Of a stretch of DNA of 64,000 nt, positions 5,497 through 11,881 are shown one piece after another. A program made the translations under genes and the position numbers. Under the pieces are notes generated by a model. The model did no database searches. It was not told the DNA's origin and saw nothing but the letters and a program-made list of their open reading frames with translations. This DNA is from Streptomyces sp. Act143 (GTDB lineage Bacteria > Actinomycetota > Actinomycetes > Streptomycetales > Streptomycetaceae), in assembly GCF_003143935.1 (NCBI RefSeq), contig NZ_QFRX01000001.1, forward strand, positions 2,391,587 to 2,455,586. Direction: 5' to 3'. Within the stretch, counting starts at the first letter, position 1; each line of letters starts with the position of its first letter.

Positions 5497-5975
5497 AGGG
5501 CCCCCTCCAGGGTCAGCAGCGCGGTCTTGCGCTGCAGCCCGCCCGCGTACCCGGTCATCGCCCCGTCCGCGCCGATCACCCGGTGGCAGGGCCGGAGGAT
5601 CAGCAGGGGGTTGGCGCCGATCGCGCCGCCGACGGCTTGGACGGCGGCCCTCGCGGCCCCGATACGGGCCGCGATCTCTCCGTAGGTGACCGTCGCCCCG
5701 TAGGGGACGTCGTCGAGGGCGGCCCAGACCCGCTCCCGGAAGGCGGTGCCCTCGGCCCGCAACTCCAGCCGGAACTCCTTGAGTTCTCCGGCGAAGTAGG
5801 CGGCGAGCTGCTCCTCGGCGTCCCGGAAGGGGCCGGGGTCGTGCTGCCAGCCCTCCTGCACGACGCGCCCGTTCTTCTGTCCGGGCACGGACAGGGACGT
5901 CAGGGCGCCGTTCGGGTCGGCGGTGAGGAGGAGAGGACCGACGGGGCTTTCGACGGTCGTCCAGCGGGTGCTCAT
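5493..5975 (-). CDS. ogt: Methylated-DNA--[protein]-cysteine S-methyltransferase
   Basis: This 160-residue suicide repair enzyme moves the methyl group from O6-methylguanine or O4-methylthymine in DNA to its own cysteine. The acceptor is Cys130 in RPCHRVIG. The helix-turn-helix-like DNA-binding segment (about 92-115, PYGATVTYGEIAARIG) and the asparagine hinge (GANPLLI) precede it. Length is normal for Ogt proteins. The start ATG at 5975 overlaps the stop of the upstream Ada-AlkA gene as ATGA, so the two are translationally coupled. Together they form a compact alkylation repair operon. Confidence 0.94.
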   Translation of the reverse strand: MSTRWTTVESPVGPLLLTADPNGALTSLSVPGQKNGRVVQEGWQHDPGPFRDAEEQLAAYFAGELKEFRLELRAEGTAFRERVWAALDDVPYGATVTYGEIAARIGAARAAVQAVGGAIGANPLLILRPCHRVIGADGAMTGYAGGLQRKTALLTLEGAL

Positions 5976-7330
5976 CGGTACTCCAACTCCCCTGCGGTGC
6001 GCAGGTGTTGCAGGGCGTACGAGCGCCAGGGGCGCCAGCTGTCGGGGAGATCGGGGCCGGGAGGGGCCACGTCCGGGTCGCCCAGGGCGCGGGTGCGGAT
6101 GACGGCGACCGTGCGGGCGTCCATGCCGGGCAGGGCGAGCAGCGCGGCCTGCGCTTCGTCGCGGTCGGCGCCCGGGTCGAGAGGTACGGCGCCGTCGGCG
6201 AGGGCGGCGGCGAGTGTGCCCACCGGGCCGTCGGCCTGGGCGAGGGCGGCGGCCTCGGGGAAAAGGTGTGTGAGGCTGCCGCAGGGCGCGTCGAGGGCCT
6301 TGCCGTACCGCCGGACCAGGTGCCCGGCCGCTTCCGTGCCGACCAGTGCCCGCACCGCGAGCTCCTCGGGGTCGACCGCCCCGGGTGACCGCAGTCCCGG
6401 CCGGGCGGCGACCAGCGGGGCGAGCCTCGGGTCTGCGCCGAGCCGCTCGTCGACGGCGTACGGATCGGCGTCGAGGTCGAACAGCCGCCGCAGCCGGCCG
6501 ACGGCGGTCGTCAGATCGCGCAGGTCGGTGAGGTGGAGCCGGGCGTCGAGCCAGCCCCGGGGCCGCTCGTCGACGGCGACGATGGCGGTGCCGTGGGGCA
6601 GCCGGAGGGTCCGCCGGTAGACGCGTCTCCCGGGAGGCCCGCCGACCTCCTCGACGCCCGGTACGGCCTCGGCGGCCAGGACGTCGAAGAGCGCGGAGGA
6701 CTGGTGGACGCCCCGGTAGGCGAGCCGCAGCGGGACGCCGGCCGCCGGGGTGGCCGTCCGCCGGGAGCGGGGGCCGGGGGCGGCGGCGCGCAGCTCGCTC
6801 GGGGTGGTGGCGTACACGGTCCGGATGGTGTCGTTGAACTGCCGCACGCTGGCGAAACCGGCGGCGAACGCGATCTGGGTGACCGGCAGCTCGGTGGTCT
6901 GGAGCAGGACGCGTGCGGTGTGCGAGCGCTGCGCCCGGGCGAGGGCCACGGGGCCGGCCCCCAGCTCGGCGGTGAGCTGCCGCTGGACCTGCCGGGCGCT
7001 GTACCCGAGCCGCCCGGCGAGCCCCGCGACGCCCTCCCGGTCGACGACCCCGTCGCCGATCAGGCGCATCGCCCGCCCCACCACGTCGGCCCGCGTGTTC
7101 CACTCCGCCGACCCCGGTACCGCGTCCGGCCGGCAGCGCCGGCAGGCCCGGAACCCCGAGCCCTGAGCGGCGGCGGCGGTCGCGAAGAACCGCACGTTCC
7201 GCCGCTTCGGCGTGACGGCCGGACAGCTGGGCCGGCAGTAGATGCCGGTGGTGGAGACGGCGAAGAAGAACTCTCCGTCGAACCGCGCATCCCGGCTGCG
7301 TACGGCTTCGTACCTGGTGTCCTCGTCCAT
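5972..7330 (-). CDS. alkA: Ada-AlkA fusion: methyl-sensing regulator domain plus 3-methyladenine DNA glycosylase
   Basis: The protein has 452 residues. Residues 1-75 form the Ada zinc domain with Cys32, Cys36, Cys63 and Cys66 (YCRPSCP and CRRCRP). The first of these corresponds to the phosphotriester methyl acceptor. Residues about 85-190 form an AraC-type helix-turn-helix (VTQIAFAAGFASVRQFNDT). Residues about 200-450 form an AlkA glycosylase domain with the helix-hairpin-helix motif LLALPGMDARTVAVIRTRALGD followed by the Asp-containing active-site loop. The enzyme excises alkylated purines, and the N-terminal half probably senses methyl damage and activates its own operon. The downstream partner is ogt, with a 4-base overlap. 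The ATG at 7330 was chosen because it precedes the conserved DEDTRYEAVRSRDARFDG opening. Confidence 0.92.
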   Translation of the reverse strand: MDEDTRYEAVRSRDARFDGEFFFAVSTTGIYCRPSCPAVTPKRRNVRFFATAAAAQGSGFRACRRCRPDAVPGSAEWNTRADVVGRAMRLIGDGVVDREGVAGLAGRLGYSARQVQRQLTAELGAGPVALARAQRSHTARVLLQTTELPVTQIAFAAGFASVRQFNDTIRTVYATTPSELRAAAPGPRSRRTATPAAGVPLRLAYRGVHQSSALFDVLAAEAVPGVEEVGGPPGRRVYRRTLRLPHGTAIVAVDERPRGWLDARLHLTDLRDLTTAVGRLRRLFDLDADPYAVDERLGADPRLAPLVAARPGLRSPGAVDPEELAVRALVGTEAAGHLVRRYGKALDAPCGSLTHLFPEAAALAQADGPVGTLAAALADGAVPLDPGADRDEAQAALLALPGMDARTVAVIRTRALGDPDVAPPGPDLPDSWRPWRSYALQHLRTAGELEYR

Positions 7331-7481
7331 CACGCTGTCCAGTGTGCGTCCTGGACGGCGAGCCGGCTGGCGGATTTCGGACACGGCATCGACCACGCCC
7401 TGGAGGGGTGCGGGGAACCGCGCGGCCGGCCACAACGTGCCCGCGGCCGCCACCGGGCGCGCCCCGGCACCCCCACGAGGG

Positions 7482-8645: not shown

Positions 8646-8714
8646 TCAGCCGGCGGCCACGGAGGTGGACGTGATGATCTGGATGCGGGCAACGCTCATC
8701 GCAATGACAGCCAT
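8646..8714 (-). CDS. 22-residue small ORF upstream of rsgA (possible leader peptide)
   Basis: The peptide is MAVIAMSVARIQIITSTSVA followed by AG and a TGA stop. It is preceded by one of the strongest ribosome sites in the window: GAAGGAGGTG, placed 7 bases from the ATG at 8714. It ends 48 bases before the rsgA start on the same strand. The peptide is hydrophobic, with no charged residue except Arg10, and has no signal cleavage site or cysteine. I do not recognise it. It could be a leader ORF coupling ribosome movement to rsgA translation, or an independent micropeptide. Codon third positions are mixed (for example GCT, ATT, GTT), unlike the neighbouring genes. Confidence 0.5.
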   Translation of the reverse strand: MAVIAMSVARIQIITSTSVAAG

Positions 8715-8812: not shown

Positions 8813-10297
8813 TCAGGCCTTGGCGCAGCTCTCCCCGTTGAGTGTGAAGGCGTATCCCGGCCCGTTCGCCCCCTGCCAGGAGGCGAGGAAGCCGAATGCG
8901 AGGCTGTCGCCGGCCGCGACGGTCCTGTTGTAGTCGGCGGCGGAGGCGGTGACGCGGGAGCCGTTCTGGGAGAAGTCCGCGTCCCACATCTGCCCGACCT
9001 CCTGGCCGTCCTTGAAGGACCAGGCGACCCGCCAGTCGTCGAGGGCCTGTGTGGTGGTCACGGTGACGGTGGCCTGGAAGCCGTCGGGCCACTGGTTGAC
9101 GAGGCTGTAGTCGTAGGTGCAGGCGGCCGGGCGGGGTGTGCCGGGGGCCGGTCCGCCGTCGTCCTGTGCGGCGGAGGAGGTCGTGCCCTGGGGTTCGGGG
9201 TCGGGGTTCTCCCGGGTCGGCGAGGCGTGGGTGGCGCTCGCGGTGGGGGTCGGGGAGCCCGGCGGGCGGGTGCTCGCGGAGGGCCCGGTGGTGCCGGGGT
9301 CGGCCGCGACCGGCTGGCGGTCGGCGGAGTCGCCGGGGCTCGCGGAGCCGTCGTCCATGGTGCCGCTGCCGAACGGCATCATCGAGACGCCGAGCGCCAG
9401 CAGCGAGACGAGTACGGCGGTGACGAGGAGGCCGTTGCGCACGACCCGCGCCTTGTGCGCGCCGGGGTTGGGCGGGCCGGTCTCGGCCGGTTCCGGGCGT
9501 CCGGCGCCCAGCCGCACCTCGGCGGCCCGGCGCCTGCGCTCCAGGTAGGCGAGGCCGCCCCAGCCGATGACGCCGCCCGCGAGCGCGGCGGGCAGGCCGC
9601 CGCCGTGCAGCCGCAGACAGGCGGCGGCCTCGGCGCACTGCACGCAGGTGGCGAGGTGCCGGGAGAGGTCCTCGGGGGTGTCGGCGCCGGCGGACCGCGT
9701 GACCGCGTCGAGGAGGCGGGCGTAGCTGCGGCACTGCGCGTCCATCGGGGTGTCGAGGTGGTTGCGATGGCTGCGGTCCCTGAACAGGCCGCGCACCTGG
9801 GCGAGTTCCTCGGACACCTGCGCCAGGTCGAGGCCGAGCCGGCGGGCCACCACGGGCAGCGGCAGCGCCTCGACCTCGGCCAGCCAGAGCAGATCGGCGT
9901 CGTGTTCCTGCATGTCGCGCAACCCGCGCAGGGCGAGCGGGCGTTGCAGGGGCGGGCCGGTGTAGCGGTCGGCCTTCTCCGAGTTGAGCCACAGCCGCAG
10001 GTCGGGGTCGAGCTTGTGCCCCTGACCGCCGTTCTCCCAGGCGGCCGCCGTGGTGCGTACGGCGGTCAGCAGCAGCGGGAGCATGGGCAGCCGCGGCGCA
10101 CGCCGGCCGGCGCTGCGGGCCGGGCCGGTGCCGGCGGCCCGGGCCTCGCGCATACCGAGGGTGAACGCCTCCGTGGCCAGTTGGTGGGCGGCGGTGGACC
10201 CGGACGTGCACAGGTCGGCATAGGAGAGCACCGCGTCCCAGCACTCCGAGAACAACGCGGCCTCGGTGGCGTCCTGAGGGGTCGGCAGGTCGGGCAT
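8813..10297 (-). CDS. Sigma-like HTH / zinc-finger / transmembrane protein with C-terminal CBM2
   Basis: The 494-residue protein combines unusual parts. Residues about 10-180 resemble an ECF sigma factor, including a region-4-like helix-turn-helix (LAEVEALPLPVVARRLGLDLAQVSEEL). Residues about 185-228 resemble an anti-sigma zinc domain with His214, Cys218 and Cys221 (HLATCVQC). Hydrophobic spans lie at about 235-252 and 287-309. A Ser/Thr/Pro linker follows, and residues about 392-494 form a family 2 carbohydrate-binding module (CTYDYSLVNQWPDGFQATVTV, ending GYAFTLNGESC). The start is at ATG 10297. The most likely reading is a membrane protein with a cytoplasmic regulator-like part and an external cellulose/chitin-binding module. 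Whether the first hydrophobic span really crosses the membrane decides the topology. No partner sigma factor gene is adjacent. Confidence 0.75.
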   Translation of the reverse strand: MPDLPTPQDATEAALFSECWDAVLSYADLCTSGSTAAHQLATEAFTLGMREARAAGTGPARSAGRRAPRLPMLPLLLTAVRTTAAAWENGGQGHKLDPDLRLWLNSEKADRYTGPPLQRPLALRGLRDMQEHDADLLWLAEVEALPLPVVARRLGLDLAQVSEELAQVRGLFRDRSHRNHLDTPMDAQCRSYARLLDAVTRSAGADTPEDLSRHLATCVQCAEAAACLRLHGGGLPAALAGGVIGWGGLAYLERRRRAAEVRLGAGRPEPAETGPPNPGAHKARVVRNGLLVTAVLVSLLALGVSMMPFGSGTMDDGSASPGDSADRQPVAADPGTTGPSASTRPPGSPTPTASATHASPTRENPDPEPQGTTSSAAQDDGGPAPGTPRPAACTYDYSLVNQWPDGFQATVTVTTTQALDDWRVAWSFKDGQEVGQMWDADFSQNGSRVTASAADYNRTVAAGDSLAFGFLASWQGANGPGYAFTLNGESCAKA

Positions 10298-10561
10298 CGG
10301 ACTCCTGCATCCAGAGCGAGGTCAACTCACCTTATTGGCAACGGAGTTGTGGGGAACCTCGCGACAGTGCACGAGCTTTTCACGGGTCCCACACAACTGA
10401 CAAGCGGGCTATTCATATCCGGTTACCGGGAGTTGGGGAGTTCCCACGTCGCGTTGCCCCTGTTACGCCTGTTGCGTCTGCTACTTCTGGTGCTGCTTCT
10501 GGATACATACGCGAAGAAGGCCCGGACGTCTCGATCCGGGCCTTCTCTCTCTGGAATGGGG
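10298..10561. other. Intergenic region, less GC-rich than its surroundings
   Basis: These 264 bases separate the CBM2 fusion gene from the radical SAM gene, both on the minus strand. Besides the terminator at 10516-10545 the region holds short AT-richer stretches that presumably contain the promoter of the CBM2 gene. I see no convincing promoter hexamers, ORF or RNA gene. Confidence 0.5.
10516..10545 (-). terminator. Intrinsic terminator after the radical SAM gene
   Basis: A perfect 11-bp stem pairs GAAGGCCCGGA (10516-10526) with TCCGGGCCTTC (10535-10545) around an 8-base loop. It lies 17 bases past the stop of the radical SAM gene. The stem is symmetric and could work on both strands. Confidence 0.85.
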
Positions 10562-11881
10562 CTACACCTGCGCCGGCTCCTCCGCCGGCAGGCTGTCCAT
10601 GAAGGAGCTGACGGAGAAGACCGCGCGGCCGGGGCCGGGCTCGCCGTAACCGGGGGGCGAGGAGAGGCCGAACTCCTCCATCGTCTGCCGGTAGGCCTGG
10701 AGCAGCCGGATGTGGTACTCCAGCGGCGCGCCCTGCGGGTTGGCCTTGCCGAGCGGGGTGGTCGGCTCCGGGCACCAGGTGGTGAAGCGGGGGGTGATGC
10801 CCTGCGACATGAAGAAGCGCAGCCCCTCCGTGGTCGACGCGATCGCCTCGTCGACCGTCTTGAAGCCGAAGGGCTCGGCCATCTCCACACCGGCCACGAA
10901 GTTGGGGATCACGTTGCGCGCGCCGAAGATCTCCGCCGAGTCCAGGATGCGCTTGTGCCACTCGTCGCGGCCGACGTAGCGCTCCTTGCCCGGGCAGTAC
11001 ATCTTGAACAGGTACTCGTCCCACACCTCGTAGTTGGGGTGGTAGATCTGCACGCCGTAGTCCTTGAACCGCTGCACGTCGTCCTTGGGCAGCGCCTGGG
11101 CGACGACCTTGCCGATCCAGCGGCCCGGGAAGCGCTCCTCGATGGCCTTGGCGTAGTGGCCGTAGAAGTCGGCCTCGTCGCGCCCGGAGACGGTCTTGGT
11201 GATCGCGCCGCCGGTCAGCGTGTACGCGGTCGACGCCTTCTGGGTGTCGTACCGGTCGATGATCTCCAGGGCTTCGAGGACCTCCTCGACGTCCTTCACG
11301 CCCGTGTACGGCCGGCCCGCCGCCTTGTGCTGGCGCCAGTTGTGGTTGATGTCGCAGTACTGGCACTCCTCCTTGGCGCCGAAGTACTGGCAGACCCGGA
11401 AGACGGTCAGATAGATGAGGTAGCCCCACTGGATGGTCGGGGCGACCTCCATCACGGACTTCCCGTTGGCGAGCTTGTGCCGGTAGTACTCCGGCATCGG
11501 GGGCACGCCGACGTCGGCGATCCGCTTGCCGTCGAGGTAGAGGCCGAGCATCCCCTCGTCGTCGGCGGCGACGCGGTACGGCGAGGCCGGGTTCACGCGC
11601 ACGGAGACGACGGTGCGGCGCAGGTCGTACGGTCCGCCGGTGAGGATGATCTCCTCCGGCGGGCGGCGCAGCGCCGCTTCGCCGAGCTCGGGGAGGGTGC
11701 CGTGGTCGAAGGAGAAGATGAAGTACGACTTCGGCTTGACCTCACCGCCCTCGTTGTCGCTGAGCGCGGACGGGTCGAAGGCCACCCCGCCGCGGAGCAG
11801 ATCCTCCTTGAAGACGGCTTCCCGCGGCACGTGCGGGAACCTCTCCATCAGATCTTCGACCAGCGCGGTACGGCTGCCCAT
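10562..11881 (-). CDS. Radical SAM protein with non-canonical CX8CX2C cluster motif
   Basis: The protein has 439 residues. Cys164, Cys173 and Cys176 (VCQYFGAKEECQYCDIN) stand where the [4Fe-4S]-binding motif of radical SAM enzymes is expected, but the first spacing is eight residues instead of three. The following Asp-Ile-Asn and the TLTGGAITKTVSGRDE segment, a GGE-like SAM contact region, support the fold. The C-terminal half is barrel-like (IYHPNYEVWDEYLFKMYCPGKERYVGRDEWHKRILDSAEIFG). A leading domain of about 145 residues precedes the motif. The substrate is unknown. No maturation, peptide-precursor or cofactor gene adjoins it to give a clue. The ATG at 11881 has GGAGG nine bases upstream. 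Confidence 0.8.
   Translation of the reverse strand: MGSRTALVEDLMERFPHVPREAVFKEDLLRGGVAFDPSALSDNEGGEVKPKSYFIFSFDHGTLPELGEAALRRPPEEIILTGGPYDLRRTVVSVRVNPASPYRVAADDEGMLGLYLDGKRIADVGVPPMPEYYRHKLANGKSVMEVAPTIQWGYLIYLTVFRVCQYFGAKEECQYCDINHNWRQHKAAGRPYTGVKDVEEVLEALEIIDRYDTQKASTAYTLTGGAITKTVSGRDEADFYGHYAKAIEERFPGRWIGKVVAQALPKDDVQRFKDYGVQIYHPNYEVWDEYLFKMYCPGKERYVGRDEWHKRILDSAEIFGARNVIPNFVAGVEMAEPFGFKTVDEAIASTTEGLRFFMSQGITPRFTTWCPEPTTPLGKANPQGAPLEYHIRLLQAYRQTMEEFGLSSPPGYGEPGPGRAVFSVSSFMDSLPAEEPAQV

What the first reader, a model, noticed from the sequence alone, without database searches (positions are those of the whole stretch)
8813..10297. Fusion of sigma-factor-like, anti-sigma-like, membrane and cellulose-binding parts in one protein
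A protein with a regulator-like N-terminal half and an external CBM2 looks like a built-in sensor: polysaccharide binding outside could alter a DNA-binding or sigma-sequestering part inside. Two hydrophobic spans make the topology ambiguous. I know of no described mechanism for such an architecture.
Basis: partly seen in the sequence, partly recalled or inferred. Interest (0 to 1): 0.62.

Follow-up and report, generated by a model that had tools for sequence, protein, structure and literature searches.

The report
Membrane cellulose-binding protein with eroded sigma domain
A Streptomyces membrane protein joins an outside cellulose/chitin-binding module to an inside sigma-factor-like and anti-sigma part; the general design is already known (ECF52), but here the sigma part has lost its usual DNA-contact residues and may act as a decoy rather than switch genes on itself.

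Summary
Minus-strand ORF 10297-8813 (494 aa) carries sigma2- and sigma4-like domains, a zinc anti-sigma (ZAS-type) motif, one strong membrane span, a Pro/Ser/Thr-rich linker and a C-terminal CBM2. Pfam on the single protein sees only the CBM2. The sigma part emerges from profile-profile comparison with ECF sigmas, from bridging hits to genuine fused ECF sigmas, and from a predicted fold whose listed PDB neighbours are nearly all sigma factors (modest scores).

The architecture is not new: it is that of ECF52 sigma factors (SCO4117 of S. coelicolor). A tree joins the window protein and four ricin-lectin paralogues of its genome in a clade next to SCO4117. What differs is the sigma half. The sigma4.2 recognition helix is acidic (Glu164 in 81 of 81 sequences, where 8 of 10 ECFs compared have Arg), region 2.4 has lost its basic residues, and region 2.2 part of its core-binding motif. 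Yet sigma and ZAS parts are more constrained than the CBM2, so this is not decay. I favour a membrane-anchored sigma mimic plus ZAS switch, controlled by polysaccharide binding, over a directly acting sigma factor; that step is inferred. New variant of a known kind.

The parts
8813..10297 (-). whole ORF, 494 aa: sigma2-like, sigma4-like, ZAS, TM, linker, CBM2
10028..10270 (-). sigma2-like region, residues 10-90
   Evidence: hhalign to ECF sigmas, alignment, predicted fold
9752..9943 (-). sigma4-like helix-turn-helix region, residues 119-182, acidic recognition helix
9635..9733 (-). zinc anti-sigma (ZAS-type) motif C189, H214, C218, C221
   Evidence: 81 of 81 sequences; kept in 11 of 11 paralogue rows and 7 of 7 fused-ECF rows; hhalign to 8 anti-sigmas of the genome E 8.3e-5 over 16 columns, shuffle minimum 0.0034
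9512..9610 (-). juxtamembrane hydrophobic helix, residues 230-262; very constrained; probably not a TM span
   Evidence: pN/pS 0.14; hydropathy
9377..9445 (-). transmembrane helix, residues 285-307
9128..9376 (-). Pro/Ser/Thr-rich linker, residues 308-390, presumably outside, unconstrained
   Evidence: pN/pS 0.99; pLDDT under 50 at 306-387
8825..9121 (-). CBM2 with three conserved Trp (W403, W438, W474)
10298..10409 (-). conserved 112-bp upstream (promoter/leader) region
   Evidence: mean pairwise identity 82% among 81 sequences against 47% in the 48 bp before it

Best explanation
The protein is a single-chain membrane sensor related to the ECF52 type of fused sigma/anti-sigma factor. SHOWN by sequence: N-terminal sigma2-sigma4 homology, zinc-type anti-sigma motif, one strong TM candidate, linker, CBM2. 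INFERRED from topology: N-terminus inside, CBM2 outside. INFERRED: the CBM2 holds on to insoluble polysaccharide (cellulose, chitin, or the hypha's own beta-glucan), and this changes the inner sigma-like/ZAS pair through the TM, by proteolysis or a conformational change. INFERRED from the loss of DNA- and core-contact residues: the sigma-like part no longer starts transcription itself but serves as a sigma mimic (plug) for a ZAS domain, so that the sensor acts through a real sigma factor. The orthologue of SCO4117, the nearest relative with a recognisable sigma domain, is the first candidate partner.
For: Domains: CBM2, sigma profile match with controls, ZAS match with controls, sigma fold. 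Bridging: profile A1 finds the SCO4117-type protein of the same genome (E 2.2e-23) and a second fused ECF (5.1e-17), both over the Pfam Sigma70_r2 cut-off. Tree: window type plus lectin paralogues form one branch (100/99); with SCO4117 types they form the next (98/95). Loss of contact residues: mean net charge of the recognition helix -1.1 (11 window-type rows) and -1.3 (11 paralogues) against +1.8 (4 SCO4117-type) and +3.2 (10 ECFs); region 2.3-2.4 -0.4 and +0.2 against +3.5 and +3.6. Glu164 in 81 of 81; the position of Arg in 6 of 10 ECFs and 4 of 4 SCO4117-type rows (R176 of sigmaE, recalled) is Gln in 77 of 81. Constraint: pN/pS 0.39 sigma2, 0.38 sigma4, 0.27 ZAS, 0.14 juxtamembrane, against 0.77 CBM2 and 0.99 linker.
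Against: No sigma gene among the neighbours examined (rsgA, radical SAM, dehydrogenase and oxidoreductase genes). The sigma2.2 Glu is kept in 79 of 81, the fused ECFs also lack the usual Gln there, and in 4 of 11 diverse window-type rows the Asp position is Glu, so core binding is not excluded. SCO4117 types are themselves only partly canonical in the recognition helix (Leu, not Arg, at position 164), and over the whole helix-turn-helix the net charge of the window type (+0.6) is not below that of SCO4117 types (0.0). AlphaFold confidence for the inner half is low (mean pLDDT 60.5, pTM 0.45, below 50 over 178-252), so sigma-ZAS docking is not shown. Synonymous change is compressed by GC bias, so only the ranking of regions is used.
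Confidence: 0.55

Rival explanations
1. An active ECF52-like sigma factor with an unusual promoter: CBM2 binding leads to cleavage of the TM, the ZAS lets go and residues 1-182 start transcription of a private regulon, as proposed for SCO4117.
For: Same domain order as the SCO4117-type protein (PMC5826349); both sigma domains under purifying selection; region 2.2 Glu kept in 79 of 81 and R169 in 79 of 81; whole helix-turn-helix charge no lower than in SCO4117 types; upstream region strongly conserved, compatible with autoregulation.
Against: Acidic recognition helix, Glu164 invariant, basic region 2.4 lost; no Pfam sigma match while both fused ECFs of the genome pass Sigma70_r2. The conserved upstream word GCTTGTCAGTTGTGT has one exact copy in the genome, and matches with up to two mismatches are about as many as in the reversed-pattern control (5 against 4), so no regulon shows by that word.
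Confidence: 0.28
2. A membrane anti-sigma factor acting in trans: the ZAS sequesters another ECF sigma, and the sigma-like part is only a structural relic.
For: All four zinc ligands in 81 of 81; ZAS pN/pS 0.27.
Against: Sigma2 and sigma4 parts are constrained as well (0.39, 0.38); no sigma gene among the neighbours examined.
Confidence: 0.1
3. A surface anchor: CBM2 fixes the hypha to cellulose or chitin and the cytoplasmic part only holds it in the membrane.
For: CBM2 with all three Trp in 77 of 81; long linker.
Against: The cytoplasmic domains are more conserved than the CBM2 (mean identity 0.77-0.93 against 0.69); a plain anchor would not need them.
Confidence: 0.05

Closest known systems
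ECF52 sigma factors, type member SCO4117 of Streptomyces coelicolor (PMC5826349, passages)
   Same: Order sigma - zinc finger - TM - proline-rich linker - carbohydrate-binding domain; homology of the sigma-ZAS part.
   Different: CBM2 instead of NPCBM; sigma domains not recognised by Pfam; usual DNA-contact residues lost or charge-reversed.
PhyR sigma-mimic domain, general stress response of Alphaproteobacteria (PMC8103513, passages)
   Same: Sigma-like fold with degenerate promoter and core contacts.
   Different: PhyR has a receiver domain and no membrane part; here membrane-bound, with its own ZAS and CBM. Whether this domain binds an anti-sigma is untested.
RsgI anti-sigma factors of Clostridium thermocellum (PMC4711584, passages)
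   Same: Cytoplasmic anti-sigma part, one membrane/wall-spanning segment, outer CBM that binds polysaccharide.
   Different: Different anti-sigma domain (no RsgI match); the sigma is a separate gene next door in Clostridium; no fused sigma.
RsrA and other ZAS anti-sigma factors
   Same: H-x3-C-x2-C with an upstream Cys at nearly the same distance (24 residues between Cys and His here, 25 in the RsrA-like locus L140; the name RsrA is recalled).
   Different: Separate protein in that case; here fused to a sigma-like part, TM and CBM2.

Membership tests
ECF52 | sigma2 domain recognised by Pfam Sigma70_r2 | tested here: not met
   No match at E<=10; the SCO4117-type protein gives 4.4e-12
ECF52 | sigma4 domain recognised by Pfam Sigma70_r4_2 | tested here: not met
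   No match by the window protein; 1 of 22 members at 0.088. Weak test: the SCO4117-type protein also stays below the cut-off (3.3e-4, 20.7 of 25.7 bits)
ECF52 | homology of the N-terminal half to ECF sigma factors | tested here: met
   fold neighbours
ECF52 | zinc finger after sigma4 | tested here: met
   four ligands in 81 of 81. Pfam zf-HC2 does not list it
ECF52 | transmembrane region | tested here: met
   hydropathy
ECF52 | proline-rich extension and carbohydrate-binding domain | tested here: met
   CBM2 instead of NPCBM; linker read from the sequence
ECF52 | found only in Actinobacteria | tested here: inconclusive
   5 of 149 genomes of the phylum hit at 1e-10, 4 of them of the window's genus (at most 18 candidates scored per genome); other phyla not searched
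ECF52 | directs transcription as a sigma factor | not testable with these tools
   contact residues argue against it
PhyR-like sigma mimic | sigma fold with degenerate DNA/core contacts | tested here: met
   by sequence and low-confidence model:
PhyR-like sigma mimic | receiver domain | tested here: not met
PhyR-like sigma mimic | binds an anti-sigma factor | not testable with these tools
RsgI | RsgI N-terminal domain | tested here: not met
   no match at E<=10
RsgI | sigma gene next to it | tested here: not met
   neighbours
CBM2 | Pfam CBM_2 and Trp triad | tested here: met
   structure match Z 18.6, rmsd 1.1 over 102 (6qfs)

The most novel reading that the evidence does not exclude
Streptomyces carry a family of membrane-anchored sigma mimics: several paralogues per genome, each with an eroded sigma part, an intact ZAS and a different outer lectin or CBM, which tune a real sigma factor (perhaps SCO4117) according to which polysaccharide is bound outside. 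This would be sigma mimicry fused to carbohydrate sensing.
Probability: 0.4. Interest if true: 0.68.

Novelty: new variant of a known kind. Interest (0 to 1): 0.47.

Why it matters
SCO4117 affects antibiotic production and differentiation (PMC5826349, passages), and I saw no established signal for it. A related family in which the sigma part has become a likely decoy, with CBM2 or ricin-type lectins outside, would offer a testable link between polymers met by the hypha and development, and a case of sigma mimicry outside the alphaproteobacterial PhyR system.

Tried and rejected
Pfam and NCBIfam on single sequences: no sigma or zinc-finger match above cut-off; not taken as absence, because profile-profile and bridging searches succeed.

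Family searches in the window's own genome: PF04542 lists 71 places (E<=0.01) and PF13490 13 places (E<=0.1); neither lists the window protein or its four paralogues, though both list the two fused ECFs. In one search, 150 of 187 candidates were scored. This is against calling it an ordinary sigma factor.

A sigma gene next to paralogue L135:5917-7407 looked like a partner pair. By reading, it resembles SigB/SigF-type sigma, not ECF, and the window gene has no such neighbour; dropped.

Full-length model: the fold search was filled by the CBM2, so the inner half was modelled alone. Foldseek gave no match at E<=0.001; the best is 1.4e-2, and Z up to 9.7 (rmsd 16 over 134, two domains placed differently) is modest for helical proteins by the tool's own note. 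The argument rests on nearly all of the 50 listed Foldseek rows being sigma factors or PhyR, by title or as a chain of an initiation complex; exceptions or unclear rows include KorA (39), a terpene synthase (46) and an RNA-guided transcription complex (45). One search also lists two UPF0122-type helix-turn-helix proteins.

Upstream region: the one Rfam line at E<=1 is a threonine-leader match far below its cut-off (24 of 55 bits) and outside the conserved stretch; no sigma-70 promoter consensus and no terminator by the simple scan; no regulon by the conserved word.

Rows left out: one search used 16 of 30 fetched Sigma70_r2 loci (13 group 1-3 sigmas and L112 left out). The tree used 39 rows: 11 chosen window-type rows, all 11 fetched paralogues, 4 SCO4117-type, 3 other fused ECFs, 10 ECFs; the program warned of long branches, including between paralogue pair L125/L163 and the window type, and paralogues did not come out as one group. 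Model 2 used 64 of 81 rows. pN/pS used 600 random pairs of the 3240 possible. One search used 8 of 13 PF13490 loci; its best match covers 16 columns around H-x3-C-x2-C and does not include C189. Genome surveys scored at most 18 or 26 candidates per genome, so counts of matches are lower bounds. Genes of the window beyond about 15 kb were not examined.

Papers: PMC5826349, PMC8999054, PMC10766802, PMC8103513 and PMC4711584 were seen as passages only, the others only as search listings. Searches aimed at a published CBM2 or ricin-lectin sigma-like protein of Streptomyces listed no title or abstract opening that describes one; the hits were not opened apart from PMC8103513, and most subscription journals are not held. 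Huang 2015 and Pinto and Mascher 2016 were not read; what is said of them is as quoted in PMC5826349 and PMC10766802. Numbering of sigmaE R176 and sigma70 D403/Q406/E407, the role of the three CBM2 Trp and the identity of RsrA are recalled (the paper tried is not held).

Full report
WHAT IS THERE. The ORF at 8813-10297 lies on the minus strand and encodes 494 residues with strongly biased third positions (95% GC). By its relatives the genome is a Streptomyces (all 80 loci bear that name; 9.6 Mb). Pfam on the single protein gives CBM_2 at 393-491, E 7.3e-27, and otherwise only a chance TM line at 0.36. The closest solved structures by sequence are CBM2 domains of the C. fimi type, and the modelled domain superposes on 6qfs with Z 18.6, rmsd 1.1 over 102 residues. 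Three tryptophans aligned with those of that CBM are kept: W403 and W438 in 81 of 81 and W474 in 77 of 81 sequences (that they form the binding face is recalled).

SIGMA PART. 80 Streptomyces orthologues were fetched, all with ATG at the aligned start. An alignment of the N-terminal 265 residues of the window protein and 17 of them (A2) was compared with 16 ECF sigmas of the same genome: E 3.3e-5, probability 72, colinear over residues 11-163. Twenty column shuffles gave at best E 0.024, probability 2.0; reversed ECFs 0.27 and 0.2. With four paralogues added (A1), the profile finds in the same genome two proteins that are genuine fused ECFs: one at C1:4816031-4816822 (E 2.2e-23 and 1.9e-12 for two stretches) and one at C1:1030733-1031362 (5.1e-17), and more weakly two other places that also carry Sigma70_r2 (8.6e-5, 8.9e-4). 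The first fused protein has Sigma70_r2 over its cut-off, Sigma70_r4_2 and zf-HC2 below theirs, and NPCBM, and follows a gene that reads as TetR-type, as SCO4117 follows atrA (PMC5826349). I take it as the SCO4117 orthologue; the neighbour's identity was not tested. A Foldseek search with the modelled N-terminal half listed sigma factors or PhyR in nearly all of 50 rows, though none at E<=0.001. The sigma4 part aligned to a sigF chain with Z 9.1, rmsd 2.0 over 64 residues.

ANTI-SIGMA PART AND TOPOLOGY. C189, H214, C218 and C221 are each in 81 of 81, and in 11 of 11 paralogue rows and 7 of 7 fused-ECF rows aligned with them. A profile of this part matches eight anti-sigmas of the genome at E 8.3e-5, over only 16 columns round H-x3-C-x2-C (30 shuffles: at best 0.0034). 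The span 285-307 has mean maximal hydropathy 2.44 and the span near 234-252 only 1.27 over 81 sequences. The latter is followed by ERRRR, is broken in the model (helices 235-240 and 246-262, low confidence), and lies in a stretch, 230-262, with pN/pS 0.14, the lowest of the regions of ten or more residues. I read it as part of the cytoplasmic unit, not a TM. One TM then puts the N-terminus inside and the CBM2 outside.

WHAT IS ODD. In one alignment the Asp of canonical ECF region 2.2 (AEDLVQE.F) is kept in 10 of 10 ECFs, 4 of 4 SCO4117 types and 3 of 3 other fused ECFs, but is Gln in 69 of 81 window-type sequences (Asp or Glu in 7 of 81) and, in a more diverse set of 11, Gln in 6, Glu in 4, His in 1. 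The following Gln is already lost in the fused ECFs; the Glu is kept in 79 of 81. In the sigma4.2 recognition helix Glu164 is in 81 of 81, where 8 of 10 ECFs have Arg and SCO4117 types Leu; the preceding residue is Glu or Asp in 70 of 81; and the position that is Arg in 6 of 10 ECFs and 4 of 4 SCO4117 types is Gln in 77 of 81. Mean net charge of that helix is -1.1 in 11 window-type rows and -1.3 in 11 paralogues, against +1.8 in 4 SCO4117-type, +1.3 in 3 other fused ECFs and +3.2 in 10 ECFs; for region 2.3-2.4 the values are -0.4, +0.2, +3.5, +2.0 and +3.6. Against this, over the whole helix-turn-helix the values are +0.6, -2.5, 0.0, +2.7 and +3.3, so window and SCO4117 types do not differ there. 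These parts are constrained: pN/pS 0.39 and 0.38 for sigma2 and sigma4, 0.27 for the ZAS, against 0.77 for the CBM2 and 0.99 for the linker, in 600 random pairs of 81 sequences (synonymous change is compressed by GC bias, so only the ranking is used).

FAMILY AND SPREAD. The genome has four paralogues of the same build with ricin-type lectins in place of the CBM2; none of the four matches a Pfam sigma model. In a tree of 39 rows the window type is one branch (100/100), window type plus paralogues a larger one (100/99), and these plus SCO4117 types the next (98/95), with long-branch warnings. Of 101 genomes of the genus, 99 have some relative at E<=1e-10 and 31 have one at E<1e-100, which I count as the window type; many others show only a match near 1e-34, as SCO4117 types do (counted from its table). 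In the order 141 of 147 genomes match; in the phylum 5 of 149, four of them of the genus.

SURROUNDINGS. The radical SAM gene lies upstream on the same strand in 80 of 80 loci, within 700 bp in 74; rsgA is found in 53 of 80 (some loci are cut short). No sigma or cellulase gene is among the neighbours examined (the DNA-repair genes at about 5.5-7.6 kb are named by reading). The 112 bp before the start codon are 82% identical on average among 81 sequences, against 47% in the 48 bp before, so the gene probably has its own, tightly held promoter or leader. No regulon was found by its best word.

MECHANISM. The architecture is that of ECF52, for which carbohydrate-triggered proteolysis or conformational change has been proposed (PMC5826349, PMC8999054; passages). 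RsgI shows an anti-sigma with an outer CBM that binds polysaccharide (PMC4711584, passages). PhyR shows that a sigma-like domain with degenerate promoter and core contacts can work by titrating an anti-sigma (PMC8103513, passages). Put together, the likeliest reading is a polysaccharide-responsive membrane switch whose sigma-like half is a mimic for a ZAS domain. Steps shown: domains, ancestry, loss of contact residues, constraint. Steps inferred: topology, ligand, transmission, the mimic role and its partner. The chief rival, a still active sigma with an unusual promoter, is not excluded.

VERDICT. Real, largely as described, with a known architecture; the eroded sigma half in a conserved clade next to SCO4117 is the new part. 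New variant of a known kind; interest 0.47.

Noticed in passing
window 8646-8714, minus strand: Small ORF of 22 codons (MAVIAMSVARIQIITSTSVAAG) after a GAAGGAGGTG stretch, between the finding's gene and rsgA; a similar peptide occurs in 6 of 80 orthologous loci (L011, L012, L013, L066, L067, L071; in L066 about 4 kb further away). Possible leader peptide.
   Followed up: partly
window 10298-10409: 112-bp region before the start codon conserved at 82% mean identity in 81 Streptomyces sequences, no Rfam family, no sigma-70 consensus.
   Followed up: partly
window 10562-11881, minus strand: Radical SAM protein (NCBIfam variant_rSAM) upstream of the gene in 80 of 80 loci, within 700 bp in 74; 92-99% identical except one short match at 69%; no function assigned.
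   Followed up: partly
L133:3805-5466 and L134:8496-10685 (same genome): Two lectin paralogues only about 20 kb apart; similar close pairs are seen in other genomes (e.g. G128, G169, G173).
   Followed up: no
L135:4806-5795 and 5917-7407: A sigma gene that reads as SigB/SigF-like directly upstream of one lectin paralogue on the same strand; a possible functional pair.
   Followed up: no
L137:4596-6209: Second fused ECF (Sigma70_r2, weak Sigma70_r4_2, zf-HC2, Pro-rich tail) without a recognised carbohydrate-binding domain.
   Followed up: no
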